From Sodiomyces alkalinus F11 (lineage: Eukaryota; Ascomycota; Sordariomycetes; Glomerellales; Plectosphaerellaceae), in the NCBI RefSeq assembly GCF_003711515.1, contig NW_021167081.1, positions 2,784,483 to 2,848,482 of the forward strand: DNA of 64,000 nucleotides, in the 5' to 3' direction. The notes below the pieces were generated by a model. The model worked only from the letters and a program-made list of their open reading frames with translations. It did not search any database and was not told where the DNA came from. The position numbers and the translations under genes are program-made. Shown here one piece after another: positions 4,561 to 58,662 of this stretch. Positions within the stretch are counted from its first letter, which is position 1; each line of letters begins with the position of its first letter.

Positions 4561-4639
4561 CTCTTTCTTCCCCTAACTACGCGGGCGATTTAGGCTTAAA
4601 AGCTTATTTTACTATACTTTACTACCCACTAGCTAATCC

Positions 4640-5880
4640 AGCCCCGACTACTTTATTTAGCTATAACCACGCCCTTATCCCCCTAATCACCGTAAAAGAT
4701 ACCTATTCCCCCCCTTCTTTTACTTCTAAACCGGTCCTTCCTTATAGTCCTTATATTCGGGGATATATACCTTAATTTCCCTACGCTAGATATAAGCCCC
4801 TACAGGAAAAAAGATCCGGTAATACTTAATAGTGTCCCCCTTTGAATACTAAGTGCTATCCTTAACCTTTTAATAGTAGCTATCTAGTTTAGCCTAATAC
4901 TAATATATTAGAGCTAGAAAAATGGCCGGAATACTATCTTAAGCTAGGAGATCTTAACCTCCTAAAGTATCGCGTTATTAATAAGCCACCTATCAATAAA
5001 CAGCCTTTATATTAATAATATAAACGCTACGCCGAGGGGACTATAAAGGGTAGTAATTATCGTTATAAATCGATTAAGGTAGTACTATACTCTGCTTAGG
5101 AGAAGGATTAGGGTAATTAATACTAGGATACTTACCGTCTAGCTAAGAGACCTCTTAATTACCCTATTGAAACTATCTTTAAAGGGTATCGTCGCTATAC
5201 ATGTAAGCGGATTCGTGAAATTAGTAGTTAGTATAGTCCGGGAACTCCTCGCTCCCTTAAATCGATACGCACTCGAAAAAGGGGTATAGAATTTCATTAT
5301 TAACCCGATTAGTTATAGCTATCTAATATTCCTCATAGTACTAATAGGGGACTTTATTAACGGTGCCGTATACCTAGATTAAAAATGCCCTAATAGCATA
5401 AGGCCTCGAGATAATCCTTATAAGATATTCCCTCTAAGGGCTAGTTATATCCTTTACTATAAAGACTCGATAACGGAAAAGGGGCGAACTATTATTAGCC
5501 TTTATCTTTAGGAATAAGGTAACCTCGATATCCCTAAGGTTAAGAAGAGTATCCTAGACCCGTTTAGTAACGGCCGCCTTGATTTTACTAGGGATTAACG
5601 ACTATAGGAAATCTAACTCGATATACGATAAGCCGCCCTTACTAGCTATTTTATACTAACTAAGATAGTAATTTATCTATAGATTATTAGCCTCTTTATA
5701 ACCTAATTAAGGTAAACTATATATAAAATTAACGAAAACCTATTACTATATCTTCTAGGGTTACCCTAAAGGAGTTTTCCGTATAAGTTTTAAGGGGTAA
5801 ACGAGCGATAAGCTAGAACTAAGGAGTCGGCTTAATAGACTACTAATAGCCGACTACCTTCTTCCTTTTATAAGACTCGG
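4640..5880 (-). pseudogene. Accessory gene X2, antisense protein of unknown family (copy A)
   Basis: The minus strand, read from about 5880 down, gives a coherent protein broken by RIP-type stops. Blocks shared with copy B, in order, are SKGGLSYIELDFL, SPLFRYRVFIVKD, YEEY*IAITNRVNNEI and GAYI*RR. The blocks are spaced alike in both copies, and the residues differ conservatively. That pattern fits former selection on a protein rather than chance alignment. The gene faces against gag-pol and X1. I recognise no family and see no clear membrane segment. N-terminus and start codon are not resolved. Confidence 0.6.
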
Positions 5881-6899
5881 TCTTATTAAGTATACTAATT
5901 AGCCGTTTAGTCGCTATTATTATTATTATTAGTTATTATAAGTATAAGTAGTGGTTATATTCGTATCTGCCTCGATATTACGGTAAGAAAAGAAAAAGAA
6001 GAGGAGGGATACCGCTAGAAAGCTCGCCTTTTATACTTAAGGGATTAAGCGATTAAGGGCGGAGTAATTTACTATTTCCCCTTTTAGATCCCTTATTCCT
6101 AAGTCACGGCTACGCCTATAACTAAATAACGTAGGAGCTATTTCGTCTAATCTTTTCGACTAATTAAAGCCCGGGTTTTAACGTCTTTTTCCTAGTCAGG
6201 AGCCTTCCCGCCGAGTTAAAGAAGTTACTATCGCTATAACTAAGGCACGCCTCCTTTAACTAATTAAAAGACTCCTTTATAGGTAGTAGCTAAATAGTAA
6301 TACCTGCTATTAAGGAATCCTCGAGGTAAAGACTATTACGGAAGAAGGTACTTTAAAGCATATTAGAGGAGGATAAATACCCCTTAACCTTAAGCCCTAA
6401 GGATCTCTTTTCCTCTCTTCCACTCTATAGTTTTCGGCTAGCCCTTCGCTCTCGGATAATACCCGTAACCACTAACCCCTATTTTATAATAACGACTTTT
6501 TCCTTTTCTTTTTAACTCTCCTTAACGTCTTTAGACCTAATTAGGTTAACCTACCGTAGTTTATACTCGTGTTAGGTCGTATTTCCCCTTAGTATCCCCT
6601 TTTCCCTTACCGCTTCTTTCTTATATACTATATATATAATCCCTCGATATAACTAATTATTAGGCTACCGCTCCGGTAAAAGACTTACTTAAGCGGTATA
6701 TTCACTCTAAAGCACGCGTAGCCGCTAAATCTTATACTAGAAGCCGTATAGAATATATCCCTAAGAAGAGTAGATAGGCTTTTCTCTTAACTGGTCTCCC
6801 CTACTACTTATTCGATATATCTAATAATAACCCTTTTTTCTTTCGGTTCGCTATAAGCGATAAGGCTAACTAACGGGTAATTTAATAGCTTTTAGGGAA
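5881..6899. other. Region between divergent X2 and X3, no gene seen
   Basis: No supported gene. It holds a short (ATT)n run near 5911-5932 and pyrimidine-rich stretches near 6403-6430 and 6590-6625. It lies between the starts of X2 (-) and X3 (+) and may once have held both promoters, as the equivalent part of copy B does. The N-terminal part of X3 may reach into this segment. Confidence 0.4.
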
Positions 6900-8767
6900 T
6901 GTGGAGGGAGAATATTTGGAAGGTAAGGCGGCGAATAACGTAACCCCGTTAACTCTATTAGTAAAGATCCGTGGGGATAGTATTATATCTGCCTAAATAG
7001 CCTTACTTACTACGTAGAGAGTATATAACACGTCTTTAAGAATAAGTGGTTAGAAAAGTCTACCCTAGAAGACCTAATTGGAGTAATAACTATTAGGTAG
7101 ATTAGGGATTCTAGACCTAAGGCCTGGATTAATAGTATTAATTTATAGGGATATAACGCTAAGAGGAGGAAATATAACTACCTAGATATTAGTAATAAGA
7201 ACCTCTTTCGTATCGCGATAAGCCGGCTAATCCCCTTTATATATTATATTAAAGGTAACCACTTTATTCGCCTAATCCTAGATTAAAAGACCTGTGTTAT
7301 ATACGTATACGATAGTATATAGTATAATAGAGGAGCTAAGAAGCGTTTACTAGAAAGTTTCAGGGGAGCTATAAGTTAGCTACGATACGTTAAGGCGCCT
7401 AAGGAGGCCGTAGATAGTCTAATCAGGAAGGTCTATATTATCTTTAGTCCTTAGTAGGAAGACGTATATTCGTGTAGTCTATTTATTAGTGAATAGATCC
7501 GTTACGTTATTTAGGAGGGATACTTATTCCCTGCCTTATCCTGACTCTACCGCTTATAGGATAGCCGCCATTATATTAACGACGTAACTAGCTATACTAA
7601 GCACGTTAGATATAGCTAGTTAAGCTACGTAGGCGAACTTTTCAGCTTCGGCTACTAACCTAAGCTAGCTTTCAGGTAATCCACCCTATCCCCTAACCTA
7701 GCTCCTACTACCACTGCTCCCGTTATAACCCCCTCTAATAATCCGCCTAAATAACGGGTTTTAAGCCTATTAATAAGAAGTAAACGCCTATTAACCCGCC
7801 TAAGGGACCGAAGACACCGAAGACGCCTAAAACGCCTAAAACCCCTTAAACGACTAAATAAAAGTCCCTTTCCCCTAATTAGGGACTAATAGAAGTACCG
7901 GCGTTCGATAATAATACTAGCGGCGTATTCCCGGAGCTAGGTAACCTTAAGCTTACTACCCCTAAGTATAAGAAGATTACTAAAGAGAGCACGCCCCTAA
8001 CTACCGAGCTCGCCCCTATTATAGTGCCGCCCGAGTCTCTTAAAGCCGAAGCCCCTGCCGGTTCCCCTAATCAGAAAAAGACTAAGCCAGAAAAGTAGTA
8101 GTAGCCCGCTCTAGTTAAGATTAGCTTAGCTACTAGCTATTATACGCATAAAGGAGAAGATATCGTTAACTTTTCTATAAGGATAAATATATAGAGTAAA
8201 TAGGAGAAGGACTAAGTATACTAGGATGATAGCCTAGAAATATCTTATAGTTTACTATTCCATAGGTTAATTAAGATAAGGAATATCCCGTTTAGGCTAA
8301 GTAAATATAGTCGTGAGAATTAAGTCTAGTCGTTTAATAACCCTTATAGGGCTGCTTTATAAAATACCGCCGCTAATAGTAGTGAGTATCTCCCGCTATC
8401 GCGAGCTATAGAATAAGGAGGATAGCGTTATTATAATACCGCTATTGAGTGGGTAGTAGATAAGGCTAGTACTAATTAAGAGGCTAAGAAGGTTAGCGAG
8501 CCTGACTATATAGTAGGAGGAAGAACTTTACGAAAGCGTAAGTAAAGGTATATATAGAGGATTAGATAAGCGACGTCTTAGGGATACGGTTAGTAATAAT
8601 AGTAAGGGAACGGTATATAAGGAGGAACTAGAACTAAGAGGATGCCTAATTAGGTATACGTGGAGGACGGGGTAATTAGAGGAATAAGGGTATACGATAG
8701 CTCTTTACTTAGTTTATTTACTTATATCTGCTAATTTTTAGGAGTTCTCTACGCTACGAGGGCGTAA
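6900..8767 (+). pseudogene. Accessory gene X3, Ulp1/SENP-like C48 cysteine protease (copy A)
   Basis: Relic of a predicted SUMO-protease-like enzyme. In one frame the catalytic region keeps His at 7260-7262 (GNHFIRLILD), Asp at 7311-7313 (VYDSI) and Cys at 7473-7475 (VYSCSLF). Gln codons six and seven residues before Cys are now TAG. His-Asp spacing is 17 residues and His-Cys 71, matching the Ulp1/SENP layout from established knowledge. A Pro/Lys-rich linker with repeated PKTPKTP follows near 7790-7860, then a C-terminal block with NYIVGGRTL-like and QGGTRTKR motifs. A frameshift sits near 7750. The stop TAA at 8765-8767 lies 21 bases before the LTR. Its catalytic residues are better kept than in copy B. 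Confidence 0.8.
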
Positions 8768-25855: not shown

Positions 25856-26214
25856 TGTAACCGCGTAGATACGGTGTTAGTGTGGTATTGGTAGCCGGTC
25901 ATATAACTCCCTTTTCGAGGCTGCTGGATCTATATCCTATATATATATTAAGGGATATATATAGGATATCCCCGGCGAGAGACTATTGTTTAATTATCAT
26001 CCTCTTTTATAATTGCTTATTCCACGTTTGAGGTATCTTTACAGTTTAACTTACGTTGCCCTGATAAGAATAGTGATTACCGATCTACTTCTTCGCTAAA
26101 GGTTATAGTAGTGTTAGTTATGTTTTAGTTATATATCGTGGGTTAGCTAGACTAACCTCTTTATCTGATCTTTGTCTTAACGATCTAGTGCCAATACGTC
26201 TTTATCTAGTTATA
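25856..26214 (+). repeat. 5' LTR of giant gypsy copy B
   Basis: 359 bases, TGTAACCGCG...GTTATA. It matches the 3' LTR without obvious gaps, and differences are mainly C/T and G/A. It should carry the promoter. An internal inverted stretch, ATCCTATATATATA / TATATATAGGAT, lies near 25932-25970. Confidence 0.93.
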
Positions 26215-26379
26215 ATATAATACTTAAAGGCGGATTTATTCGGCGTCCCTAAAGTGTTCTAACCCTGATTAGAGTAATAGAGGCATTTAAGGAAGGTTCC
26301 GGCCCTCCTAAACGGACTATTAGTTAACGACCCCTAGAGGATATAAAGATAACGACCGAGGAAGGATTTAACGCTTTAA

Positions 26380-29300: not shown

Positions 29301-32300
29301 CTAAACCCGTTACTACTATAATTACTACCCGGCCTGCCCCGCGGGCCTTAGCTTAAAAAGATACCCTTTATTTATTTAACTAGGAGGCCGTTATATAAAA
29401 GGTCCGCGGGAAGAGCCTAAAACACCTTTTAAGGATAGAGGTTAAGATTCCTATAGTTTACCTCCTCTTTACTAATAAAGCTATCCTCGCGGACTACGAG
29501 GAGATATTATAGTTAATCGGTAGCTAAGTAAAGCCTTATACAGTTATCTGCTTAACCCCTAAAAAGGCCTTTTTTATAGACTCCTTACCCCTTAAACCCG
29601 AACGCCCTATATAGTTTACGAATACTATAACTATAGCCCCTACGCCTAATAATACCCTATCTATCACGCCCGCGCCGATAATTAATAAACTAAAGCCTCC
29701 TACTATTTACGCTAAGTATATAATATTACGGGTTAGCCTAACTTAGCGAATAGCTAAGGCCTACCCTATAAAAGATCGTTTCTATATAGTTATCGATATA
29801 AGAGCCGTCTTTAATACTATACGGCTAGACCTTATAGAGAAGCTAGGATTACGGGGCTATATAGGGGAAAGTAATATTATAATTAAAGGAATTAACGATA
29901 TAGATAGGCTAAACTATATAGGCTATCTAGAAGAGTACCTTTAGGTCGGGGACTATCACGGGAAGGTGTATTTTATAGTGATTAAGAGGATAGAACCCTG
30001 GATACTCCTTAGCCCATTATTATTACTTAATAGTCACGCCTGTTTTACCTATAAGGAAAGATAAATCGATATAGATTTTACCCATAGTAATACCCGTAAT
30101 ATTATCCTTATCGCTAGTAGGGAATAACTCGATAACCGCCCTTATAGATAGAGCTAGCCTAAGTTTAAAAAGGAGGAGAAACGCTAAGAGGAGGAGGATT
30201 TAATCGATTAGAGTATCGGATAATAGAGGGAGGATAGCGTCCCTTATAGTTAGTCCGGGGCTATTACCTTAATATTAAGTAACGATAGGATTAATAGTTC
30301 GCCCAATTAGGGGGTAAAAGAGGAGGAGGAGATAAAGGAGGAGAAGGAGAAAGGCGATAGCGATATTTTCTTGTATTTAGATAATAAGGATACTATTACT
30401 TTAATCGTTTTCCTCTTTACGGAGGAGGTAAAGCCCTTAATATAGAGAATTTATATAGCCTTAAGGGCGATACCACGAAATTAGGGCTAATAATATAAAA
30501 GGTATATCGCGGAGGCTCCGTATATAATAACTACGACTATATAATAATAACTAATTTATAGTAACCACTTATCCTTTTTACCTTTTCTATACTACTATTA
30601 GCCTAATTACCCTAATAGCCTTTTAGTCTTATAATTTCAGAAGAACCCGACGATATAGGATAATTCCTAGATAAAAGCGCTTAAGGCTTTAAAGAAAGAG
30701 GAGGATAATATTGCTAGTATAGCCGCGGTTACGATAAAGAGGCTATAGTAGCTAAAGAGGAGGAAATCCCAGGATCTTATTAAAGAAGTATACTATCCCC
30801 CTAATCCCGGAGGCGTCTTTACTATATAGAAGCCTAAGGCTCTTAAGGTTTACCCTCTTAACGATATTCTGTCTAATAGAAATATCCCTAATAAAGACCC
30901 CTACTTGAAGAAGAATATCCTTATACAAATTAATGAGGAAGACTAGGAGCTAGAAGATAAGCGGTTTCTTAGCCTAATTATACTAAAGTTTTCTAAAATT
31001 ATACCTTATTCGCGCCTTATACCCGAAAGACTTAACGCTATCTTAAAGACCGTTAACTACTTAACCCTTAAGGAATAGGAGCTCCTGATAAAAATCCCCC
31101 TAAACCGCGAAGTAGCTATTACGTGGAATTAGACTAAATACGGCCGCCTTAATAAATAAGTGGCCCCTTTATAGAAGATTCGGGCGGTCCCTTATAAGGC
31201 GTAGTAGGCGAAGGAGATCCATATCCTTAAGGCTCTAGAGTCTATAGTCGTGTAGATAATAAAGGACCGCCTTAAAAAAGGTATAATCGAGGAGAGCTAT
31301 GTAGGCTACTATAACCCCTGGTTCCTAGTTAAGAAAAAGGACGGTAATATACGACTTATTAACTCGGGTACTAAGATTATCGTAGTAACCCTTTAAGATA
31401 CCTTTATACCGCCTAGGGCCGATAAGTTCTCCGAGGATTTCGCTATATATAAGCTTATATCCCTCTTAGACCTTTTCTCCGGCTATGATTACTTAACGAG
31501 GAGTCTTAAGATCTAACCACCTTTACGACTATTACTAGACTTTTTAGGATATATACCCTTCCTTAGGGGGCTACTAGTTTAATAGCCTAGTTTATACGTA
31601 TTATAACCTATATCCTTTACGACCTTATTCCCTAGTATTATAGACTCTTTATTAATGATATTATAGTGAAAGAACTAATAACCACCTACGAGGATACCCT
31701 AATTAGGCCTAGAATCCGCCGTTTTATAGCCGAGTATATCGTTAATATTAATAAAGTGCTTTTTAACATGGAGCTAGCTAGAGGTATTATCGTAGGTATT
31801 AAAAGCTAGTAGTATTAGAAAGCAGCTATTATCGTGGGCTATATCTACGGTACTAATAGTTATTCCCCTAAGTAGGCTAAGATCGTAAAGGTCTAAGAGT
31901 AGGAAAGGTATAGTATAGTCTTTAATATTTATTTATTCCTTAGTCTTACTACGTTTGATCGAGTCTAGATTTATCAGTTCGCTATTATTACTAGACCTCT
32001 AACGGACCTGCTAAGGAAGAATACTGCCTTTAAGTAGGAGGAGCCTTAATAATACGCTATAGACGCCCTTAAGAAAGTCCTTATTACTGCCCCTATCCTG
32101 ATTACTATTTAGTACGACGAAGAAGTAGGAGTTATCTACGTTATCGTTAACGCTAGTACGGATAGATAAAGGGGAATCCTTAGTTAGTTTATTAAGGATA
32201 AAAGAGCTATAGCATAGTACGAAAGCGGTCGCTAATCCCCTACGGAGAGGGTTTATAATACTAGTAAGCTAGAGCTAAGGGGAGTCCTAAAGACCTTTTA

Positions 32301-34301
32301 GCGCCTACGTAACTACCTTTATAGGGTTTACTTTATCCTTGAGACCGATACCTAAGCCCTCCTATCCTAGTTAAAAGGATCTATTACTAATCTCCTTAGT
32401 ACCCTAACTACCCGATAGTTCGCCTGGATCCGGCTTTTCGACTTCGACGTTAAATATATTAAAGGATCTAAGAATACTATAGCCGATAGACTCTCCCGGA
32501 TACCCGGAAAACCCTTTAATTAGACTAACGACTATAGTAAGAGAGACCTAAACGATTTCGTGGATAATAGAATCATCTTTATAGAAGCCGAGAAGTAATT
32601 TAACGACCCTGCCCTAGCTAACGATATCCTCGATAAGGACCTTACCTAGAGTTAGTTTTCCCGATAAGTAGCTACCTTTTTAACGACCTTTCGCGTGCCT
32701 AAAGGAATAGATCCTAATGAAGCCCGTAGAGTTAAAGATAGGGCCACCCGTGTATTCCTTAAGAATAGACTATTATAGACCCGAGTAACTAAGGCCGATT
32801 CGACCCCTAAACGCTAGATAGACGATAAGGATACTTAGGTTAACCTAATTAGGAGAGCCTACGATAAATCCAGATACTAAGGAAGGTAAGGGACTTATTA
32901 TCGCCTCGCCGCTAACTACTTCTAGGATAGTATCTATAAGAGTGTTTAGAGGTTTATTAAGTCCTGTTCCGAATACTAGGCCCGCTATAGCCGTTCTTAG
33001 GAGGATCCCCTAATCTTAATAAGCCTACCCGAAACCGCCCTCCCTTTTACCTGGGTTAGTCTAAACGTTTAATATCGTTAAGGGTAGTATCTTATAAAGG
33101 CTCGCTATATATTTATAGGTTAGGTCGAGGCTTAACTGCCAAAGAAGAATACGTCTAAGGCCATTACCTTATTTCTATGGGAAGATATAATCTATAAGAA
33201 TAGGCTTTATATAATCCTCCTTATAGATAGAGGTCCTAAGAATAAGGGTTATATAATTAAGCTAAACCGTTATTATAGGACTACTCGAAAGCTTACCTCG
33301 GCGTATTACCCCCGCGCTAATAGCCTTAATAAGGTTAGATATAAGGCTATTACCTACACTCTATTTATCTAGTCAAAGCTTTACCCTAAAGCCTCTTATA
33401 AGATCCTCCTATTAGTCTTTTTCGCTAACTATATAATAGTAAGAGCTTTTACTGGCTATACTCCTTTTTTCCTTCTACACGGCTATAAGGCTATTACCCC
33501 GATTGGGACGACCTGCCTAACCTTGAGAGTACTAGACTAGGGCCGCGTTCAAACCCTAAGAATAAGATAATACTTCGGTTAAGGGCTTTTACTTAGATTA
33601 ATACCGATTAACGTGCTACTATTACTATAATCACTAAATAATAAGGGCGACGGATAGCCTATATTAACGCTAGCCGTGCCCGGGTACTCTATAAATAAAG
33701 GCTATAAGTTAAGGATCTTATACTAGTTTACGATACTAAGAAAGCTATCTATATAAGCCGTAAGGCTAAGCTTAACTACCGATAGAATAGCCTATATTAT
33801 ATCCAGAAGGCTAATCACGATAATAAGTCCTTTATCCTTAAGACTCTTACTAGGGAAGAACTAAAAGGGGTTACTTTTACCGCTAACCGCTTAAAGAAGT
33901 TTGTCTAAAACGACGATAGGCACTAGGAGTATAAGGACTAGACTATACTTAAATAAGACTATAGCGAGGAGCTTAAGAGTACGTATCCTGCTTAAGGAGC
34001 GCTTATTACCGAAGAAATCACCGATATACCCTTTTTACCTAGCAAGGACCCTAAGGAAGATACTAAGGCCGAGGATAATATTAGTTCCCCTAATTATACT
34101 ATTAACGGTCTTTTACGCCGCTCCGAGAGACTAAGAGAGTTATTAAGGCAGTATTATAAGAAGCTAGAGGAAGAGTTAAAAAAGTTGAGGGCGTCTAGTA
34201 CTATTAATGTATAGATTCTATAGCGCCTAGATTTTAACCCGACTAAGTACGAGGATTATACTAGTAAGCTATATTTTATTCCTTATTATCACTTTCCCTG
34301 A
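26380..34301 (+). pseudogene. Gag-pol polyprotein relic of giant gypsy copy B
   Basis: Gag through the start of reverse transcriptase lies in one reading frame: the knuckle at 28649-28690, the protease at 29795 and the GIIEESY motif at 31280 all share the same phase. The CCHC knuckle reads YYYYG*EGYSRDNY, with every Cys and His now Tyr. Protease is DIRA for DTGA at 29795-29806. Reverse transcriptase has FLVKKKDGNIRLIN and the box FINDIIVK at 31648-31671. RNase H lies near 32130-32510. Integrase has a Cys-rich finger near 32935-33000, the core to about 33560 and a tail near 33690-33900. A 7-base deletion near 31493, compared with copy A, shifts the frame. The stop TGA at 34299-34301 is shared with copy A. 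The gag start is not resolved. Confidence 0.9.
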
Positions 34302-34720: not shown

Positions 34721-35440
34721 TACACCTAGTTTAATATAAGCTACCTATTCTACAGAAAGGAGTTATAATCGGGAATAACTAGTATAGAGACGGTTACTAA
34801 AGGTATAATATAATTAAAAGAAATACCGTTAAAGGCTAGAAGCCGTAAACCGTAAATCCCTCCTTTACTAACCCTGGTACTAGTAACTTATTAAGTTATT
34901 ACGTTAATCTTAAAGGCCGATTTTAGAAGTATAAAAGCCCTCCCCTTCCTACTACATAAAGCCCCTTTTCCTAATCGCTATTACTAATCGCTTTCCCTAT
35001 TACTAATATTATACCTATATTCCCCTAACTATACCTATATATACTGGCCTTAAACCTATTGTACGTAAGTTCCTTATCCGGAAAGAAAAGACTAATACTA
35101 TACCTACCACTGAAAGAGTAAGTTTAAGATACTAAGTTAATAGCGTTAAGAGCCCCGCTAGAAAAACCCCTAAAAAAGAAAAACGTACTATCACGACGAC
35201 GACAGCGATAATAATAATAAAGACCGAAAAATCCGGGGAATCCCTATTTTCGTTAGCCTAATTAAGCGATTACCGGCCGCTACCCGTGAATTTAATTCTT
35301 TTTATAAGGGCTTTATTAGGTCTATAGAGTCTACTCGTGTAAAGTAAAAAACAGATTATTATAAAGAGAAGGAAAAAGAGAAGAAGATAAGCCACAAAGA
35401 AGACCTCCTTTTATACCTTTTCCCCCCTACCCTTACTACC
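34720..35440 (+). pseudogene. Accessory gene X1, basic protein (copy B)
   Basis: Counterpart of 3800-4560. Shared blocks are LPIL, NPSFTNPGTSN, LKPIVRKFLIRKEKTNTIP, VKSPARKTPKKEK, then IFVSLIKRLPAAT and YYKEKEKEKK. A one-base difference near 34918 shifts the frame compared with copy A. The central basic blocks are kept in both copies. The protein would be roughly 230-250 residues. The family is unknown; a chromatin or nuclear role is suggested only by the KSPARKTP-like basic stretch. Confidence 0.6.
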
Positions 35441-35599
35441 TATTCCCCTAATAGGATATATTACGAAGTTCTCGTAAAAAGAGTAAAAGCCCTGGTTACT
35501 AGGGAATATCGCTTCTTAGAAATCCCGTTTATCTATTAGAGTTATATTATCTAGATAATTAATTATCTAATTCCCTTTCCTATAAGCCACCTAGTAAAC

Positions 35600-36780
35600 C
35601 ACGTACCTATCCTTACTACCTATTCGCCCAATTATAAAACACCCTATTAAGTAAGTAACTGAGTTTCTGGGTTAGGGTCGCTTTTATAGTTACCTTCCTC
35701 CGGGTCGTACTTCTCGGAAACCCGGCGCTAGATATAAGCCCCCTTAGGGAGCGGAATAGTCTAGTAGATAATTATTTCCTTTTAGTTAGGCACCTCCTTA
35801 GCCTTACGAATAATATTGTAATACCCGTCTATAGTCTTCCTATATCGAGCTAGGAGCACTAGGATAAGTCTAAGTAAGCTATTATAAGCTTTAAGAGTTT
35901 TACCGGTATAAGCCTAGCGTATCTAGCGAGCGATTTCGTAGCCTATAGCGGTTATATTAACTAGGAAGACGCCGGTCCGAGGCGAGTAGATTAGGTGCCG
36001 TTTATTATTATATAAGGACTAAAGTAGCACTAAGCTATCCTTAAGGAGGAGATTATAGTATTTAAAGCCGGGGTAATTATTTTCGGGCTAGCTAATCTTA
36101 TACTTAGCCTACTAGAACTCCTTACGAAGGCTATTATCCCGGAACGTGTAAGCAGACTTATAGAATAAATAGTTAGCGTAGTCGGGGAAGCGTGGATTCT
36201 ACGGCAGGGAAACGCACTTATATAATAAGTACGTGATCTTATTATTAACCCGATCTATTATAGCTATCTAGTATTCTTCGTAATACTAAGAGGGCACCTT
36301 CTTAACTACGCTATATACCTATATAATAAATACTTTAGCGGCGTAAGGCCTTATCACGATCTTTATAATATACTCTCTCTAGGGACCTATAAGGTCCTTA
36401 GCTATAAAGATATAATAACGGAATAAAGGCGTTTTAAAAAAGTCGCGTATCTCCCTAAATAAAGCCTATTCTATATCCCGGTCAGCGATATTTAATAAGG
36501 TATCCTAAAACCGGTTCGTAATAATAAGCCGGGTATCTAAATCGACGACCGAAGATAGGAGGTCGAGCTTAACGTATGAAACGCCGCCCTTACTAGGCAC
36601 TTCGAACTAACTAATATAGGTATTAACCTTAGCACCGAAGTTAGTATCCCCTAATTAGGGTACCTATAAAAAATAAGGAAGGAAAACTTATAGTTATATC
36701 TATACGCGTTACCTAAACGTTATACTTATTAGGAGTACCCTTTATTACACGCGTCTGAGGCTAAATCAATAGAATAGGCT
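35600..36780 (-). pseudogene. Accessory gene X2, antisense protein of unknown family (copy B)
   Basis: On the minus strand the frame reads from about 36660 down: NFGAKVNTYIS, SKGGVSYVKLDLLSS, TPLFRYYIFIAKDLIGP, KVFII*VYSVVKKVPS, YYEEY*IAIIDRVNNKITY, RFPDYANYLFYKSAYTFRD, PGFKYYNLLLKDSLVLL, VFLVNITAIGYEIARQIR, LLRLILVLLARYRKTIDGYY and GAYI*RR. Stops fit Gln or Trp. Over 300 residues can be followed without a frameshift. The same order occurs in copy A. It lies between X1 and X3 and is divergent from X3. No family is recognised; I looked for polymerase, helicase, methyltransferase and chromodomain motifs by eye and saw none. Confidence 0.7.
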
Positions 36781-37624
36781 TAACGGACTCTTACCTACTA
36801 ATGGCCTTCTTACGTTTATACGGCTCCGCCTTATTTAATATTCTAATTATATACTTAGAGGCTATAGTATATATTTAAGTAGTTAAGAAGTTAAGAAGTT
36901 ATAGTGCTATCTAAGAGATATCTCAAGAAGTAACGAAGTTACTTAAAAGAAGAAGAACGAGGAGCCCGGGACCCCATAACTTTTATATTTAAGAGACTAA
37001 TAAGTAGAGGCATTAACGGGACGGCTTATAGCTTCTATAAGTTAGAGGAAGCGTTACTAATAAAGGAATCACGACTATTTAACCTGCCTTTATAGCTATT
37101 TATAGCTACCTCCTTTTATTTCCCTGTATTATAAAATCACGACTACGCCCACTACCTAATAAACGAAAAGCCGTATCCGATATTTACTAGCTAATTATAG
37201 TAAGCGCTAAAGCTAGTTAGCTAATTATAGTAAGTGTTTCTAATATCGATTTCCTAAGTTAGTTCCCTTTTTCCGATTTACGAAGACTATCTTTATTACG
37301 ATATAGGAAATATCCTTCTTTAACGACTAAAAGACCGTTCGGGCTATAGTTATAAGCTAAGGGCTCTTACTTTAAGGAGAGAACCTTTAAGAGATATCCC
37401 TAGAGGATAATTAGAACCCTCCTCGGCCTTAGTCCTAATCTTCCCCTTCGATATATCCTTATTAACTCAGGTTTACCTATTCTCCCCTATTATATGCCGC
37501 CCCCCCTTTTCTATTTCTATCCCTCTAAGTTTTCCTAATACCTCTCCCTCCTCCCTTTTTCTCTTTTTCTTTTATAAGAAATTATTACTAAAAAGCCTGA
37601 TTGGGGTAATATAAGTAACCGTAG
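36781..37624. other. Divergent intergenic region between X2 and X3
   Basis: No gene seen. It sits between the starts of two divergent genes. AAGTTAAGAAGTTA-type direct repeats lie near 36880-36905, and GCTAGTTAGCTAATTATAG words repeat near 37170-37225. A pyrimidine tract precedes the X3 start. Confidence 0.5.
37495..37578 (+). promoter_or_regulatory. Pyrimidine-rich tract before the X3 start
   Basis: About 80 bases almost wholly C and T, ending some 50 bases before ATG 37625. CT-rich tracts just upstream of the start are common in filamentous-fungus promoters (established knowledge). It suggests that X3 had its own transcript rather than being read only from the LTR; this is inference. Confidence 0.4.
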
Positions 37625-39694
37625 ATGCCAGGACCCGTAAATATTAACGCTATAGCCGCTAATAACTTAGTAAACTACTAGGTCACCGCCCCTAAGGGCT
37701 TAGACCTAAATAAGGGCGTTTAACCTAAAGCACGAACCGCTATTAAACTAAGTATTAGGCCTTATAAGGAGTATAACCCTAAGACGAGTAGATAGGTATT
37801 CCTAGTAAGTGGTTTACCGTACTGCCTCTTTAAGGCCGTAGATAACGATACCCCTTATACTAGGTTTAGAGCCATCTTAAAAGAAGACTAGTAGATACTC
37901 TAAGGACTCGTAAGCTAGAATAAGAATAACGGGCTAGACGTAGAGATTATAGGACTAGCCGTATTATAGTCCCCTCTAATAATCTTATATAGCGAGCAGT
38001 CTCTTAAAGTCCGTTCCATTTTAATATTAGCTTACCGACTACGTAAAGATATTAAGGCTAATAGGTAGTAAGAGAAGGGCGTTATAGAAAAGGTAGTAAG
38101 TGCGGTGGTTAGCTGTAGGTAAGGAGATTTAAGGCCTACGGTATTCAATAATAAGATTCCGTGCTAGGGTATAAATACTAAGGGTAAGGCGGAGTTTATA
38201 ACTCTCTCCGATAAGGTATAGTAGTATATTAAAACTAGCCGCTTTATCCTTATAATCTACCACGTTAACGGTAACTATTTCGTTAGCCTAATTATCGACT
38301 AAGAGACTTGGATTATATATAGGTATAATAGTATATAGTCTAACGGTAAAGGTAAATAACGCCTCCTTAAAGTCGCTTATCTTATAATATAGTGGATAAT
38401 TTCTATAAAAGCTCCTAAGGAAGCCGTTAATAGTATAGCTAAGAAGTTCTATATTATCCCTAGCCCTATATAAATAGACGGTTACTTATATAGTCCTTTT
38501 ATTATAGAATAAATTAAAGCTTTTGTCTAAGAGGGATACCTATTCCCTTAAAGCTCTAAGATTTATAGATTTACTTAAGGCCGCTATTACGGGAATAATA
38601 TACGGGAATATTCTCGGTATATTAAAGAAGGCTAGGTAATTTATATTAGTGAACTCTTCGGCTTCGGTTACTATCCAGAACTAGCTATAAAGCCCGCGAC
38701 GCTGCCTCCTAAGGCCCCTAAGATAACTGGATTCTAGCCTATTAATAAAACTAAAAAGTAAAGACCGGTTAACCCGCCTAAGGGTCCTAAGACTCCTAAG
38801 ATGCCTAAAGTCGAAGAGGAGTCTATTAACCTTACTAATTCGCCTAATCCCGAGATTATAGACCTTACTAATATATTAGGCCAGAGTTTCTAGGACCCCT
38901 TAGTATTATCCGATAGTAGTAGTAATATCGACGATATAGGTCTTAGTAGCCTCGAGCTCTAGACGCTAAAGGGTAAAAAAGCCGTGAAGTAGGCACTACT
39001 AGCTATTAAGAAAACGCCGCCCCCGAAGATACCTACAACGCCTAAGACTCCTAAGGCGGCGCCTAAGCCCGTTACCGTCTTAAAGAAGAGGAGCTACGAT
39101 ATCTAAAATAAATAGGAAAATGAGGTAAAGTACTAGGCTAAGGGCAAGGAGATATCTTATTACCTGCTTTACTATAGACTCGTAGATATACGGCCTCTAG
39201 CTAAGCGCGTTAGTCCTATTAGGCTAAGACTATATACTAAGGAAGAATAGGTTAAGTCCTTTAATAACCTATACCGAGCAGGCCTCTATAATGTAGTGGC
39301 TAATAGCGCGCTATATCTATCGCCGCCTTAGGCTATACCTTAGGAAGGATAGCTTCGATATAACGCGGGGATTCTGTAGGAGGCGGATAAAGCTACCGCT
39401 AACTAAGAGGCTAGGAAGGCTAATAAGCCTAACTATATAGTCGGAGGAAGGACTTTATAAAAGCGTAAATAGAGGTAGATATAAAGGATTAGATAAGCGG
39501 CGTCTTAAGAGTATAGTGAGTAAAGATAGTAAGGGAACGGTATATAAGGAGGAACTAGAACTAAGAGGATCACTAATTAGGTATACGTAGAGGACGGGGT
39601 AATTAGAGGAATAAGGGTACGCCATAGCTCTTTACTTAGTTTATTTACTTATATCTACTTATTTTTAGGAGTTATCTACGCTATAAGGGCGTAA
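37625..39694 (+). pseudogene. Accessory gene X3, Ulp1/SENP-like C48 cysteine protease (copy B)
   Basis: ATG 37625 to TAA 39692 lies in one phase: 2070 bases, 689 codons, broken only by stops that fit RIP of Gln/Trp codons. The N-terminus reads MPGPVNINAIAANNLVNY. The protease core is near residues 200-310: VNGNYFVSLIID (catalytic His position 38276-38278, now Tyr), IYRYNSI (Asp position 38327-38329, now Asn), and PI*IDGYLYSPF (Gln position now TAG; Cys position 38489-38491, now Tyr). His-Asp is 17 and His-Cys 71 residues, with Gln six before Cys, exactly as in copy A and very near Ulp1. Each change is a RIP transition. A Pro/Lys-rich linker (KTPPPKIPTTPKTPK) and a C-terminal block with NYIVGGRTL and GGTRTKR follow. 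It ends 21 bases before the LTR. Confidence 0.85.
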
Positions 39695-39715: not shown

Positions 39716-40074
39716 TATAACCGCGTAGATACGGCGTTAGTATAGTATCGGCAGCCTATTATATAACCCCCCTTTTTAAGGCTACGGGATCGGCCTCCCA
39801 CTTATATATTAAGGACAGGCTCTAGATATCCCTATCAAGAGACAATCATTTAATTATCATCCTCTTTTATAATTACATATTCCACATTTAAGGTATCTTT
39901 CTAGTTTAACTTACGTTGCCCTAATCAGAGCAGTGACTATCGATCTACTTCTTCGCTAAAGGTTATAGCGGTGTTAGTTATATTTTGGTTATATATCGTG
40001 GTTTTACTGGACTGACCTCTTTGTCTGATCTTTATCTTGACGATCTAGTGCCACTACGTCTTTATCCAGTTATA
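39716..40074 (+). repeat. 3' LTR of giant gypsy copy B
   Basis: 359 bases, the same length as the 5' LTR, starting TATAACCGCG (RIP form) and ending GTTATA. It holds CGATCTACTTCTTCGCTAAA near 39940, shared with all four LTR copies in the window. Confidence 0.93.
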
Positions 40075-41948
40075 TTAGCTATAAAGCTAAGCCTAGGAGG
40101 CTATAACCCTTTCGAGGACTTTACCTAGGTAGTTTAGAAGGGCTATAATCCTATAAGACTTAGGATTTAAATAGTCCTTCTTTCCCGGCTTTAGTAAAAC
40201 GACCCCTAGGGCTTCTTTCTAGTAGGTAGGATAGTGGCCTGCTATAAATAGTGCTGTATAGGCTTGTAAAAAGAACCCGGCGATAACCTTACAGGCCTAT
40301 TGGATCGTCTTTAGACTAATTCTATCAGGTCCTAGGGCTTTCCCCTTAGCAGCACGGAAGATAGCGTGTTATAGTTCGGTAGCCTAAAGGCTAGGCTACT
40401 CCCACGGTCTTCTAAGGCCCTTACTACGTGATCTAGTTAGGCTCTGGGGACTATTAGAAGGGTAAGAGGGGCCTAGGTCCCCTAAAGAGCCCATAAATAC
40501 CGGGGCTTCGGGGGCGTCAGTGGCGGAGGGTATAGGAAAAAGGGTCTGAAGTAGGGCGTTGTATTTATCTTTAGAGGTATAGGCTTTCTATTTCGTAGGC
40601 GTTTGAATCGGTGGGATTTTCGTGTTAAGGCTGTTCTTTGTATAGTTATAGGCCTTGAAAATTTCGTGGCCTTAGGCGTGGGCTAGGAAGGCCTCCTAGT
40701 GGTCGTTCTTTACTGTTTTTACTTCCCTGTAGTAGGCGTTCCGAGCTTCTTTCCAGGAGGTTTCTAAAGGCGCTAGCTAGGAAACTAAGGCCCCTTGTTT
40801 AGACGTCTTTCTAAATACCCTAAAAGGCCTGTGGGCTGATTTTCGCAGGGCCTTTAGCTCTTTAGTCCACCACGGTTTCGAACGCTTTACTACCCTTAAC
40901 TTAGGTACTATAGCCTAAGGCGCGAGGGTAATAGTATTTGAGAGGTAGTGACCTAAAGAGTCCCAGTCCGAGGCGTTAATAGCCTGTCAGAGGTCCCGGT
41001 TAAGGCTAGGTTCTAGGCTTTTTAGGGTATTAGAAAATAGGTCCTAATCCGCTAGCTTATAATTATAAGCCGGCAGGAGAGACCTGTTTAACAGACCTTT
41101 AGAGCCTAAAATAGTAGCCGAAAGGAGGATAGCGCGGTGTAAGGAGGTAGTCTTCTCGATATGCTCCTGCTTATCGAAGCGGAGATAATCGAAGCCGGGC
41201 GTGTAAAAGGCTAGGTCTATAACAGACTCTTAACGAAGATTAGACCTAAAAAAGATCCCCCTGTTTAGGTTAACTTCTTTAGAATCTACTAAATAGGTGG
41301 CTCCGAGGCTATCTAACCAGTCTATTAGAGCCTAGGCCCTAATAGAAGCTTATTTAGTAGTAGCTCCGTTCTACTACTAGTAGTTTCTGTTAAAGTCCCC
41401 TATACTAAAGGTAGGCTTAGGGACCTATAGGCCCTATAGTACTCGATCCTCGGTCCAGGGCCGGTTTCTAGGGCCTGAAAAGGAGGGGAAAGAAGAGGAA
41501 GAAGAAGAAGTGGAAGAGGTAGAAGGGGTAGGGCTAGGGGCCGCCCTCGGCCTATCGTTTCGGGGTCCTATTCTATCTAAATATAGACGTGTAGAATATA
41601 AAAGGTCTATGGATAATAAACCTCTATAATCTACGCATCTATATCGTCCAGAAGGTCTTCGCGGTGTGAAAATTCGATACTAGAGCCCTTCCTTATATAA
41701 GTAATGACCCTAGGCTTAATACGGAAGAACTGGGTTTTGTAGGATATAGGCGTAACGGTATAGAAAGTAGGGTAGTTCCGAATCAACCACCCTTCTGGTG
41801 TTAAGACGTAGGCTGGTTCCTAAATACGGACTATATTAGCCGAAGCCTTTAAAGCCTGTTCTAGGATAGCCTCTTACGCCGGGGCCTATTTATCGACGTT
41901 ATATTAAATAAACCGGATACCTGTCGAACTAAAAGGCCCTTTATTCAT
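40075..41948 (-). pseudogene. LINE ORF2: endonuclease and start of reverse transcriptase
   Basis: The start is ATG 41948 (MNKGPFSSTGIRF). The endonuclease then reads IRFI*YNVDK, IVRIQEPAYVLTPEGWLIRN, RVITYIRKGSSIEFS and DDIDAQIIEVYYP. The GDFN box is GDFNRNY near 41400. A linker follows with KPWWTKELKALRKSAHRPF near 40880 and a Thr/Pro stretch near 40610. The first reverse-transcriptase motifs, EALGVVLLKPGKKDYLNPK and SYRIIALLNYLGKVLERVIA, end at the LTR boundary. The catalytic FADD box is missing. Stops are few compared with other elements here. Its role would be target-primed reverse transcription. Confidence 0.85.
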
Positions 41949-41949
41949 G

Positions 41950-43630
41950 GAATTTAGGGTTTTATAGCTCGAAAGACCATATAGTCCCTGCTAAAAGGGG
42001 GGTGATCTCCCTCGTAGTTATAGGACTTATAGGTCTTATACTTATAGTCTCCGTATTCTTTATACTCGTTATAGTAATGGTATTCCTCCCTATAGCCTTT
42101 AACAGTATAGATAGGGCAGGAAACTAGGCCTTTACAGGTCTCTCGGGTGTGTCCGAATTTCTAGTAGTTAGAGCACTGGGTTCTAGGGGTTATAGGCCTA
42201 TATTTACAGACCTTTAATCGCTGGCCGGCTATATAAAGCCCCTATTTTAGGCAGTACTTCAATTCCTTAGTAGAGGGTATAGAAATAACTACTATGCCGT
42301 AGAATATATTTAGAGCCCCTAGCCACTAAGGCTTCCCTACTACCCTAATAGTGTTAAAGGTGCCGATTTTAGTGGCTAGGTCCTATAGACCTAGGCCCTA
42401 TTATAGGCTTCGGTTCAGGGCCTTTTGCGGTGGCTCGGGTGCGGTCGGGTAAAGGGGTATCGCCACCCCTAAAAGCTTTAGAAGGCACCTATTTAATAAT
42501 AAGCTTAAACTAGTCGCCTGTAGGCTAGGGGGGCTAGAGGGGGAGGTTTAGCTCTTTAAACCACTGATTCTGCGAGTCTAGGAGCTATTAAACGCTGTAT
42601 TTCGGCCCCGGGGTTAAAATAAGGTTCCTGTTAGTCGACCGGCTAATAACCGTAACTATAGAAAATTTTAGGGCCTTATTAAGCTTATTTTAAAGCGCGA
42701 GGGGGTCGACGTTATCCCTAGGAATCGCTACCCCTGCCGTAGGTTAAAGGATAACCTTAGCCACCTTTTTAGAGTCTATAGGGAGGGGTACCTAGGAGGT
42801 CTAGGCCTAGGCTATAGGTGCTAGGGCCTTTAAAATAGGGGCCTGGGGTGCTATAGGGCCTTTTTTCCTCTTTATAGCCTCGCTATAAAGGAGTTTAGGC
42901 TATTCTATAAGCCTACTAACTACCTAGGCTAGTTTATCGACCTTCCATTCGAGTGTGGGAGGCTAGGGGGCTTCCAGAGCTCCGTCGATAGTAGATTTAA
43001 GCCCTACGAATAGGGCTTTAATCTAGGGGCCAGGGTCGAGGGTTTAGGCCTGTTAAAGCAGCTGAAGAGCCTGTTAGAGTAGTTCTATAGCCGATGCCTT
43101 ATTAGCCGAACTAGTCGACTTCTAGGGCTTTGCCGAGGTTTCTCTAGCGGCTTTCGCTATTCCGGGCGCCTTTTTAGCCTATTTAGGGCCTAAAAGGCTC
43201 GGTTCTTTAGTAGAGGGGGCCCTAGAAGCAGGGGGGGCCTTAGAAGGCGTTTTAGAAGCGCTTTCGGCTTCCGAGTCCGAGGGGGATTCGATTCAGGTCC
43301 TAGAAAAACGTCTAGGGGTAGGTATAGAAGGGCTAAGGTGCCTTTTCGAATTTAGAGGCGTAGAGAGCGTTAAGTCCTGTATATTTTCAGAGGTATTACC
43401 TATATCTACCTCCCCTAGGCCCTATATAGTTATAGGGGCCTTAGGGGGGGTGTTAGGGGTGTTAAGGCTATTCTTATAGCTAGCGTTATGGCTAGTGGGT
43501 TATTGGTTGTGGCGTGTGATTGGGTAGAGGTCGGGGGTGCGGCTCTGCGCGGCTGCTTTATTAGCGTGGGCGCACGGGCCACGTTAGACTTTTCCCCCGC
43601 ACGCGGGGGAGCAGACCTGGTTCCAGGCAT
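41950..43630 (-). pseudogene. LINE ORF1 (gag-like) with CCHC knuckle
   Basis: The start is ATG 43630, with a clean N-terminus MPGTRSAPPRAGEKSNVARA running 66 residues to the first stop. The middle is Pro/Ala-rich and broken by stops and frame changes. Near the C-terminus, a knuckle around 42175-42130 reads CSNY*KFGHTRETC (C-x2-C-x4-H-x4-C, second Cys now Tyr), followed by a second Cys pair in KGLVSCPIYT. A Tyr/Lys/Glu-rich tail follows. The frame ends at TAA just before ORF2's ATG, so the two are nearly contiguous, as in Tad1-like elements. I chose this start because the whole N-terminus is open and in the expected place. Confidence 0.75.
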
Positions 43631-43796
43631 TTTCGCACTTGTAATACGCCTAAATTAGCGCCTACGCGGCATAGGGCTATGGACAGGCGTATAGAGCTTG
43701 AAAAGAGCTATCCATTAATATAGGTTTCGAGTGGTTTAGGGCGTTTGCGGGTAAAACGTAGGTCCCCCGACGTGAGTTGTAAGAAGGATGACTGCT

Positions 43797-45470
43797 CTGA
43801 TTAAAATAAGTGGATTGAAGCTATAACAGAACTTGGAAACAGAAATACCTGGGATTTAATAAATATAAAAGATACGCCTTTATATAATAATAATCATAAT
43901 GATAAGGATAAAGATACCTTAAACGTGTTAGGAGGCCGTAACGTATATAAGATTAAAGATAACGATAAAAACGAGGCTACAAAATATAAAGCACGTTAGT
44001 ATATATAAGGGGTTAATTAAGTACTCGGTATTAATTATTTAGAAACCTTTTCTACTATGTATAGACGCGAGAGCTATAGATCAGCTTTTATACTAGGCGT
44101 ATCCCTAGACTAGAATTTTAGATACTTCGTTGTAAACAACGCTTTCGTTTACGCCAATATAGATACCGAGATATATACTATATAACCTATAGGCTTCGAG
44201 GAAAAAGAAGGCTCTAATAATAATTTAGTTTATAAACTAAATAAAGCTTTGTACAGTTTAAAAAAAAGCCCCCGGCTTTAGTATAATTTCCTTATGAAAA
44301 TACTCCGCGAAATCGGCTGCCTAGTCTCTGATTTTGATAATAGTATATTCACTTTATATAAGAATAAACAGACCGTGCTATACTACTATACCACGTAGAC
44401 GATATAGTGGTATTAAGCCCTTCGTATATAGCGATATAGTATTTATTTACTAAAATACCAAAACAGATCTCACTCAAAGATCTAGGTTAACTATATACCT
44501 TCTTAGGCCACGAAATCACTATAAATAAGTTAAATAAGACTCTTTCTATTAATCAGTTACCTTATACGAATATAATCCTCGATAAATATAATAAACGAAG
44601 CCTTAAACGCGTTAATGCCTCTTATATAAATAGAAAGATCCTTATACTAAATTAGGAATAGGCATTCAAAGCCGATATTCAAATATACTAACGAGAAATC
44701 GGTGCTTTATTATATTTAGCACTACACTCTAGACCAGATATAACCTATGCTATGAATAAATAGGCTCGATATATAAGTAATCTATCTCTATAGCACTCTA
44801 AAGCTTTAAATCGAATCTAGGCTTATATAAACACTTTTCCTATTATCGGGCTCTTATATAACTATTTTAATACAAAAGACCTCAATATATACGGTTATTC
44901 TGATGCTAGTTATTCAGATATAATCGAAGACAGGACTGCTACCTCAGGCTATATCTACTATATAGGTGTAAATAATTTAATAAGCTAGACTTCTACTAAA
45001 CAGAAAGTCGGTACTTTATTAATAACAGAAGCAGAGTATATAGCTTTAATTAAAGCTTCTAAAGATAGAATCTGTATATATAATATATATACAGACCTAG
45101 TAAATAACCTAAGGTTATTTACTAATATAAACTTTGGTTTATATACTAATAATAGTAAGATACCGATTCCTACTATAGTAATAGATAGCGAAAGCGCAAA
45201 GAAGCTTTATAAAAATTCTGAATTTCACAAACGTGTAAAGTATATAGACCGTCAGTATTACTACTGCAGAGAACAGCTTTAAAATAATAAAATAAACGTC
45301 GTTTATATAAATACTAAATTCAATATAGCCGATATAATGACTAAGGCCTTACCTAAAGACCTACATAATACCATATACGGTTATATGAATTTAGGCTATA
45401 AAAACGACACGTTGCCTGACTACGATATACCACCTTATACCCGGATTCAAGAACTAAATTACTAAGGTCT
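43797..45470 (+). pseudogene. Copia pol: reverse transcriptase and RNase H, 5' truncated
   Basis: Starts inside the copia reverse transcriptase (WIEAITELGNRNTWDLI). It continues with GGRNVYKIKD, ETFSTMYRRESYRSAFILG, NNAFVYANIDTEIY, LNKALYSLKKSPRL and the catalytic HVDDIVVLS at 44392-44418, which lies one base out of phase with the upstream frame. RNase H follows with RPDITYAMNK, IYGYSDASYSDII, TATSGYIYYIGVN, EAEYIALIKASKDRI, FHKRVKYIDRQYYY and NIADIMTKALPKDLHN near 45320-45375. Stops are moderate and CpA/TpG partly kept. Gag, protease and integrase are missing because the LINE's 5' end abuts near 43790. Confidence 0.9.
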
Positions 45471-58049: not shown

Positions 58050-58302
58050 CAGCCTTGTAGATTCCTACCTAGAGGACTAAAGCGCTATTAGGCGGTTTAA
58101 TAGTTATAAAACGGGCTTAGTTTTTAAAGACGTGGATTAACGATCCTAAGTCCCTTAGTATTATAATCTTAATCGTGATATTATACGAGGGCACGCCGCG
58201 TCTTAGGTAGGAGAGAATCCTAGTCGCCCCTCGCGAATACGTTAAAGTTCGATACAGGTGCTTCTTCTATTATTGTTACGGCTAAAGTAGTTACCTTAAT
58301 AG

Positions 58303-58662
58303 TATAACCAGATAAAGATGTTATAGCACTAGATCGTCAAGACAAAGATTAGATAAGGAGGTTAGTCTACCAAAAGCACGATACATAACCAAAATATAAC
58401 CAATAACACTATAACCTTTAGCGAAGATATAGATCGGTAGTCACTATTCTGATTAGGGTAATATAAGTTGAACTGGAAAGATACCTTAAATGTAGAACAA
58501 GCAATTGCAACAGAGGATGATGATTAAATAATGATCCCTTGATAGGGATATCCTACGTCTATCCTTAATATATATATATAGGATGTGGATCCAGCAGCCT
58601 TAAAAAAGGAGTTATATACCTATCTGCTAGAACTACTCCAAAGCCGTATCTGCGCAGTTATA
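58303..58662 (-). repeat. Solo LTR of the giant gypsy family, minus orientation
   Basis: 360 bases, reverse complement of the 8789, 25856 and 39716 LTRs, with ends TATAAC...GTTATA. It is flanked on both sides by ATAG (58299-58302 and 58663-58666), a perfect 4-base direct repeat that fits a target duplication. No internal sequence is attached. It keeps more CpA/TpG than the other LTRs, for example AACAAGCAATTGCAACAGAG near 58496. Confidence 0.88.

What the first reader, a model, noticed from the sequence alone, without database searches (positions are those of the whole stretch)
37625..39694. A Ulp1/SENP-like C48 cysteine protease encoded inside a Ty3/gypsy retrotransposon
Seen: one 689-codon phase between pol and the 3' LTR. 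His, Asp, Gln and Cys positions are spaced 17 (His-Asp) and 71 (His-Cys) residues apart, with Gln six before Cys. Copy A keeps His 7260, Asp 7311 and Cys 7473; copy B shows Tyr, Asn and Tyr at the same places, each a RIP transition. Known: yeast Ulp1 uses His514, Asp531, Gln574 and Cys580. Ulp1-like genes are known in some DNA transposons (certain plant MULEs), but I know of no described case in a gypsy element. Inference: it may remove SUMO or a similar modifier from capsid or silencing proteins, or process the element's own polyprotein.
Basis: partly seen in the sequence, partly recalled or inferred. Interest (0 to 1): 0.88.

Follow-up and report, generated by a model that had tools for sequence, protein, structure and literature searches.

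The report
SUMO-protease-like gene in fungal retrotransposon
A dead family of fungal jumping genes carries, besides its usual genes, a two-gene insert whose second gene resembles the enzymes that cells use to remove the protein tag SUMO, which suggests that these elements may once have interfered with the host's own silencing machinery.

Summary
The frame at 37625-39694 was a gene, although it probably ends near codon 600-640. It recurs at 92 places in the genome; all 101 matched stretches contain stops. The window copy itself shows Tyr, Asn, stop and Tyr at the four claimed catalytic positions and matches no C48 model. A sister group keeps the residues: of 32 copies, His in 22, Asp in 19, Gln in 3, Cys in 21, and nearly all losses are RIP-type transitions. 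Single sister copies pass Pfam's Peptidase_C48 cut-off (best 26.3 bits; 21.1 with every stop masked); ten reversed decoys match nothing. New here: the gene is half of a roughly 4-kb cassette. The other half is a gene on the opposite strand, found beside it at 79 of 92 places. Two cassette versions, about 40% alike, sit in nearly the same gypsy backbone with sharp edges, as if swapped. Most likely it encoded an element-borne deSUMOylase that countered silencing, by analogy with Ulp1-bearing plant Vandal elements; that function is inference. Structure prediction failed and no outside homologue was found.

The parts
25857..26217 (+). LTR at the left end, probably the 5' LTR of this element
   Evidence: Repeat of the 3' LTR. 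Pairing not certain: 20 transversions in 359 sites against the 3' LTR, while copy A's 3' LTR differs from it by only 10 in 355. The adjoining 26219-27200 recurs upstream of X3 in other copies.
29792..30016 (+). Retropepsin-like stretch of pol
   Evidence: By eye only; no Pfam match in this piece.
31304..31492 (+). Reverse-transcriptase-like stretch
   Evidence: By eye only; no Pfam match in this piece.
32041..32373 (+). RNase H domain of pol
   Evidence: PF17919 E 3e-11, PF17917 E 1.4e-9, stops read as one residue.
32827..32985 (+). Integrase zinc-binding domain
   Evidence: PF17921 E 6.5e-7.
35350..39400 (.). Cassette that differs between the A and B groups while both sides of it are nearly the same (edges approximate)
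   Evidence: A-B transversions about 1-4% outside, 15-28% inside; right edge within 39365-39424 in 32 of 32 A-type copies; 40 of 40 scored matches to 34900-35800 run across the left edge.
35641..36720 (-). X2, opposite-strand gene of unknown family, RIP-damaged
   Evidence: 41% identity over 318 residues between copies A and B, E 7e-57; 98 matches, 89 places in the genome; no Pfam match.
36721..37624 (.). Stretch between the divergent genes X2 and X3, presumably holding both promoters
   Evidence: Position between the two frames; promoter role is inference.
37625..39425 (+). X3, C48-protease-like gene, RIP-damaged (end approximate)
   Evidence: 92 places; codon-position bias; stops throughout.
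38075..38660 (+). Catalytic region of X3: His 38276, Asp 38327, Gln 38471, Cys 38489 (here Tyr, Asn, stop, Tyr)
   Evidence: Pfam matches in A-type copies.
6690..8700 (+). X3 of copy A, sister type: His 7260, Asp 7311, Cys 7473 kept, stop at Gln; frame broken in places
   Evidence: Peptidase_C48 17.7 bits, E 0.0035, below the cut-off of 20.7.
4702..5769 (-). X2 of copy A
39716..40075 (+). 3' LTR

Best explanation
X3 is the RIP-killed remnant of a gene for a cysteine protease of the Ulp1/SENP (C48) type, carried between pol and the 3' LTR of a Ty3/gypsy element (supported by sequence: C48 similarity, the His-Asp-Gln-Cys set, position in the element, past selection on the frame; my probability for this part is about 0.88). 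It belongs to a two-gene cassette with the opposite-strand gene X2, kept together and exchanged as a unit between near-identical backbones (co-occurrence and sharp edges shown; exchange inferred, about 0.75). Inferred function: the protease removed SUMO, or a similar tag, from host silencing or DNA-binding proteins at the element's own chromatin, with X2 as a partner, so that the element could be expressed in a host that silences repeats (about 0.4). The confidence given is for the whole chain.
For: Single copies over Pfam's C48 cut-off: 5 of 10, L048 26.3 bits, L048 21.1 bits with stops masked; 0 of 10 reversed decoys match. His 22, Asp 19, Gln 3 and Cys 21 of 32 A-type copies. Transversion excess at third codon positions, 0.171, 0.149 and 0.257. 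X2 upstream on the opposite strand at 79 of 92 X3 places; types concordant, A-A 38 and B-B 40. Sharp cassette edges. Own Ulp-type, SUMO/ubiquitin-like and DNA methyltransferase genes in the host. In yeast, Ulp1 or SUMO-conjugation mutants raise Ty1 RNA (PMC8585004, passages); Ulp1-bearing Vandal genes direct hypomethylation of their own kind (PMC13317346, passages). SUMO-interacting-motif-like stretches in 19 and 20 of 30 B-type copies.
Against: The window copy and 7 other B-type copies have no C48 match. Scores are modest, and with stops masked C48 was found in 1 of 4, 4 of 9 and 2 of 3 copies; unrelated families also appear weakly (CaMBD in 7 of 32, best E 0.0015). The fold model is of low confidence and its structural matches are not C48. 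No outside homologue was found and no PDB match. The SUMO-motif-like stretches are absent from 32 of 32 A-type copies. X2 has no recognised domain. Nothing here shows activity, substrate or direction of effect.
Confidence: 0.42

Rival explanations
1. X3 is a second maturation protease that cuts the element's own Gag or Pol, as adenovirus and Polinton proteases of related fold do for capsids (that comparison is recalled).
For: It is element-encoded and of a fold used for capsid maturation in DNA viruses; the element had every reason to keep it.
Against: A retropepsin-like stretch is present in pol (by eye), so a second protease seems unneeded; X3 is a separate frame in a swappable module, paired with X2 rather than with gag.
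Confidence: 0.15
2. X3 is a C48-type enzyme for another tag (NEDD8, ubiquitin) or with another activity, as is known for some C48-like proteins (recalled).
For: C48 also includes NEDP1-like enzymes, one of which is in this genome (L003). X3 has His-Phe instead of His-Trp, and Ser or Gly after Cys.
Against: SUMO-motif-like stretches in B-type copies, though post hoc and absent from A-type.
Confidence: 0.22
3. X3 and X2 are passenger genes picked up from a host and carried without use.
For: Retroelements do capture genes; no function is shown.
Against: Both genes are kept in two groups that are about 40% alike, in the same arrangement, with a codon-position signal and the catalytic set.
Confidence: 0.1
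4. The A-B difference reflects very fast evolution of the cassette in place, not exchange of modules.
For: Arms-race genes evolve fast; rapid divergence is reported for the Vandal targets (PMC10398659, abstract).
Against: Third codon positions and the stretch between the genes are as diverged as the rest, with sharp edges and 1-4% transversions outside; no intermediates seen among the copies read.
Confidence: 0.2
5. The C48 resemblance is chance in RIP-biased sequence.
For: The window copy scores nothing, and weak hits to unrelated families occur.
Against: Curated cut-off passed by several copies, one with stops masked; 0 of 10 reversed decoys; His, Gln and Cys codons, which RIP removes, are kept at the right places in copies.
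Confidence: 0.04

Closest known systems
KIU genes of Vandal and other Mutator-like DNA transposons of plants, with Ulp1 domains
   Same: A mobile element carries a Ulp1-type domain in an accessory gene; KIU-bearing Vandals induce hypomethylation of their own kind (PMC13317346, passages).
   Different: DNA transposons, not LTR elements; there the Ulp1 domain sits in a VANC-type gene, here in a gene beside an opposite-strand partner that matches no Pfam family.
Ginger1 DNA transposons
   Same: Gypsy-like integrase and, in some, a C-terminal Ulp1 domain (PMC2836005, passages).
   Different: Cut-and-paste elements with inverted repeats; Ulp1 is fused to the transposase. Here there are LTRs, RNase H and a separate gene.
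CryptonF and CryptonS elements of oomycetes with C48 peptidase
   Same: Mobile elements with a C48 peptidase beside their own enzyme; domain shuffling suggested by the authors (PMC3212892, passages).
   Different: Tyrosine-recombinase elements of oomycetes.
Host Ulp1, Ulp2 and NEDP1-like genes of this genome (L001-L003)
   Same: C48 family, with His and Cys motifs in the same order; host Ulp1 aligns in register with X3, without significance.
   Different: Intact and not RIP-marked; His-Trp and Cys-Gly where X3 has His-Phe and mostly Cys-Ser.

Membership tests
Peptidase family C48 (PF02902) | Match to the family profile above the curated cut-off | tested here: met
   A-type copies: 5 of 10 over 20.7 bits, L048 26.3 and 21.1 with stops masked. 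B-type, including the window copy: 0 of 8 match; B-type joins only through its similarity to A-type.
Peptidase family C48 (PF02902) | His-Asp-Gln-Cys set in Ulp1 spacing | tested here: met
Spacing 17, 71 and 6; residues kept in 22, 19, 3 and 21 of 32 A-type copies.
Peptidase family C48 (PF02902) | Ulp1/SENP fold | tested here: inconclusive
   Model pLDDT 35.6 from a two-row alignment; matches listed are other folds.
Peptidase family C48 (PF02902) | Removal of SUMO or a related tag | not testable with these tools
Ty3/gypsy LTR retrotransposon | LTRs and pol with RNase H before integrase | tested here: met
   RNase H and integrase zinc domain in order; LTR repeats; RT and retropepsin by eye only.
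Ty3/gypsy LTR retrotransposon | X3 lies inside the element in most copies | tested here: met
   Of 40 scored matches to the 5' part (100 candidates), 25 have X3 10.8-13.0 kb downstream on the same strand (19 B, 6 A), 6 at 14.7-19.4 kb, 9 none.
Vandal/KIU-like anti-silencing system | Ulp1-type domain in an accessory gene of a mobile element | tested here: met
Vandal/KIU-like anti-silencing system | Tandem-repeat target motifs in the non-coding region | tested here: inconclusive
   Only short two- or three-copy repeats between X2 and X3; RIP may have blurred more.
Vandal/KIU-like anti-silencing system | Relief of silencing in trans | not testable with these tools
   Needs expression and methylation data.

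The most novel reading that the evidence does not exclude
A Ty3/gypsy lineage carried a swappable self-recognition module: a C48 deSUMOylase, an opposite-strand partner protein and the control region between them, inherited and exchanged as one unit between near-identical backbones. Each version would have protected only elements of its own type from SUMO-dependent silencing: a retrotransposon counterpart, arisen independently, of the VANC/KIU anti-silencing systems of plant DNA transposons.
Probability: 0.25. Interest if true: 0.92.

Novelty: new variant of a known kind. Interest (0 to 1): 0.74.

Why it matters
C48 proteases are known in several DNA transposons, but I found none described in an LTR retrotransposon (paper searches; open-licence papers only). 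If X3 opposed silencing, removal of SUMO-type tags would be a weapon that unrelated mobile elements acquired repeatedly. The swapped two-gene cassette gives a natural comparison, the same backbone with two modules, that could show whether such systems are specific to their own element. It would also make the role of SUMO in fungal repeat silencing testable from the parasite's side.

Tried and rejected
Direct Pfam scan of the window frame: no C48 match. Protein-database searches for X3 with one copy and with a profile and for X2: nothing; RIP removes the short words on which that search depends, so this is weak evidence of absence. Viral and prokaryote contig scans: 34 and 64 stretches matched a pattern, none confirmed. 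PDB sequence searches with two single copies: chance-level matches; with the profile: none. Structure: low-confidence model; the rows are other folds such as glucokinase, eRF1 and reverse transcriptase, and no C48 chain is among the 50 shown; I treat them as meaningless. hhalign against host Ulp1: in register at His, Gln and Cys, not significant (E 0.45). The multi-copy alignment upstream of X3 does not support X2 as coding: 31 of 42 indels in the X2 part are not multiples of three, and the codon-position signal there is uneven; it looked gappy, so X2's coding claim rests. Target-motif repeats between X2 and X3: not convincing. Descent of X3 from the host's Ulp genes could not be tested at this divergence. 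The host species was not identified; a RIP-competent filamentous ascomycete is inferred from composition and DNA methyltransferase genes.

Rows left out of counts. Of 43 rows, 30 became loci (one of them the window itself) and 13 rows were not read for residues. Of 40 rows, 12 became loci (one the window) and 20 more were fetched; 8 were not read. Both DNA searches scored only 40 of 111 and 40 of 75 candidates. L005 and L035 repeat the window and were dropped. 32 of the 62 aligned copies went into alignment A1, chosen for few stops and an unbroken frame; one search took 9 of its A-type rows, one search took 10. The decoys were reversed 215-residue cores, whereas the forward sequences were 318-322 residues. 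Cassette types were assigned by me from percent identity. The motif patterns were chosen after seeing the sequence.

Full report
What is there. The window comes from a 43.4-Mb, 22-contig genome. The finding's frame is strongly RIP-marked: TA/AT is 1.98 and (CA+TG)/(AC+GT) 0.18, against 0.55-0.83 and 1.08-1.19 at three host loci. No closed open frame of 200 codons exists in the window. The frame at 37625 holds 50 stops. It lies between a gypsy-type pol (RNase H E 3e-11, integrase zinc domain E 6.5e-7; reverse transcriptase and retropepsin by eye only) and an LTR.

Is the frame a gene? Yes. A DNA search gave 43 matches in the genome at 81-89% identity, most of them near full length (40 of 111 candidates scored). 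Of 56 indel runs in 29 B-type copies against the window copy, 38 are multiples of three (my count; many are one shared 6-base event, so these are not independent). Between 12 A-type and 30 B-type copies, transversions, which RIP does not make, fall on codon positions 1, 2 and 3 at rates of 0.171, 0.149 and 0.257.

Is it C48? The window copy cannot say: it has no C48 match. RIP turns His and Cys codons into Tyr, and Gln and Trp codons into stops. The sister group (A-type, that of window copy A) is less damaged. Of 32 A-type copies, 22 have His (10 Tyr), 19 Asp (12 Asn, 1 Tyr), 3 Gln (29 stop) and 21 Cys (11 Tyr). Of 30 B-type copies, 29 have Tyr and 1 a stop at His; 6 have Asp, 22 Asn, 1 Lys and 1 Thr; 30 a stop at Gln; 29 Tyr and 1 a stop at Cys. 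The neighbouring bases fit RIP. In Pfam scans of 32 single copies with stops read as one residue, Peptidase_C48 came up in 18, best E 7.7e-6; the next family, CaMBD, in 7, best 0.0015. Ten A-type copies all listed C48, 5 over the curated cut-off (in one of the ten another family ranked first). L048 reached 26.3 bits, and window copy A 17.7 bits, below the cut-off of 20.7. Eight B-type copies, the window's among them, gave none. Ten reversed decoys matched nothing. With stops masked, C48 came up in 1 of 4 copies, 4 of 9 and 2 of 3; only L048 then passes the cut-off (21.1 bits). L048 has its own His, Gln and Cys, with Asn at the Asp position. The B-type is tied to the A-type by six-frame matches, the longer ones at 34-47% identity and E down to 1e-47. 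Structure prediction was not informative.

How many, and how intact? A six-frame search gave 101 matches, all 102 candidates scored, at 92 places after merging. Every row contains stops, so no working copy was seen in this assembly.

The cassette. Comparing the two window copies along their length, transversions stay at about 1-4% from pol to about 35350, lie at 15-28% over about 4 kb, and return to about 3% before the LTR. The right edge lies within 39365-39424 in 32 of 32 A-type copies; 2 of these carry other sequence further on. Third codon positions jump as well (for example 88 of 278 in the cassette against at most 13 of 300 in pol), so weaker selection alone does not explain it. Forty of 40 scored matches to 34900-35800 run across the left edge. 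Inside the cassette a second gene, X2, runs on the minus strand: 41% identity over 318 residues between copies A and B, E 7e-57, against E 2e-24 for the best plus-strand frame through that stretch. Against this, the partial multi-copy alignment shows no codon-like indel pattern in X2. X2 has 98 matches at 89 places. At 79 of 92 X3 places an X2 lies upstream, 79 of 79 on the opposite strand, median gap 1465 bases; 13 X3 places have none. Types agree: of 89 X2 places, 38 A-type lie near A-type X3, 40 B-type near B-type, 1 B-type near both, 10 near none. Both types share the 5' backbone: of 40 scored matches to 26219-27200, 25 have X3 10.8-13.0 kb downstream on the same strand (19 B, 6 A), 6 at 14.7-19.4 kb, which may be chance neighbours, and 9 have none. 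So the element reads LTR-gag-pol-[X2 reversed, X3]-LTR, about 14 kb, with two alternative modules. The pairing of the window's own two LTRs is not certain.

What it most likely did. The catalytic set is traceable in the sister group and fits RIP decay in the other. Removal of a ubiquitin-like tag is the known activity of the family (established knowledge). B-type copies carry two stretches after the domain that look like SUMO-interacting motifs (19 and 20 of 30 copies; a looser pattern arises in 2.9% of shuffles of the segment), but A-type copies carry none (0 of 32), and the patterns, recalled from memory, were chosen after seeing the sequence. The genome has 9 Rad60-SLD matches without stops, some probably ubiquitin rather than SUMO, its own Ulp-type genes and three DNA methyltransferase loci. 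[quoted passage not shown] In yeast, ulp1 and SUMO-conjugation mutants raise Ty1 RNA, which the authors trace to lower SUMOylation of some factor (PMC8585004, passages). By analogy I propose an element-borne deSUMOylase that relieves silencing, with X2 as partner. Substrate, direction of effect and X2's role are inference.

What is known already. C48 domains are described in Mutator-like elements (PMC13317346), Ginger1 (PMC2836005, passages) and oomycete Cryptons (PMC3212892, passages). Searches for one in an LTR element listed no such case. I saw search listings only, except passages of the papers named here, of PMC8127270 (its C48 is a treatment label) and of PMC6338049 (no such protease mentioned). 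The library lacks most subscription papers, so this is not proof of novelty.

Noticed in passing
window 58299-58665 (minus): Another LTR of the same family, about 80-82% like the others, without a matching X3 beside it by DNA comparison; perhaps a solo LTR.
   Followed up: no
window 25857-26217 and 39716-40075: The two LTRs taken as a pair differ by 20 transversions in 359 sites, more than the 3' LTRs of copies A and B (10 in 355), so the pairing or the element's history is unclear.
   Followed up: partly
G000 contig C21 (72498 bases): X2 matches at 4077-4937 and 67562-68422 are exact mirror positions with equal scores, and X3 matches are nearly so; the contig may be a large inverted repeat or an assembly artefact.
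   Followed up: no
window 40100-44100: A block of higher GC (0.44-0.47) next to the 3' LTR; the three minus-strand frames gave no Pfam match.
   Followed up: partly
window 46141-47462 and 54297-55616; 18674-19099 and 48552-48978: Further repeat pairs at 73-75% identity, of other families.
   Followed up: no
window 38780-38930: After the catalytic region X3 has a Pro-Lys-rich linker and, in B-type copies only, SUMO-interacting-motif-like stretches.
   Followed up: partly
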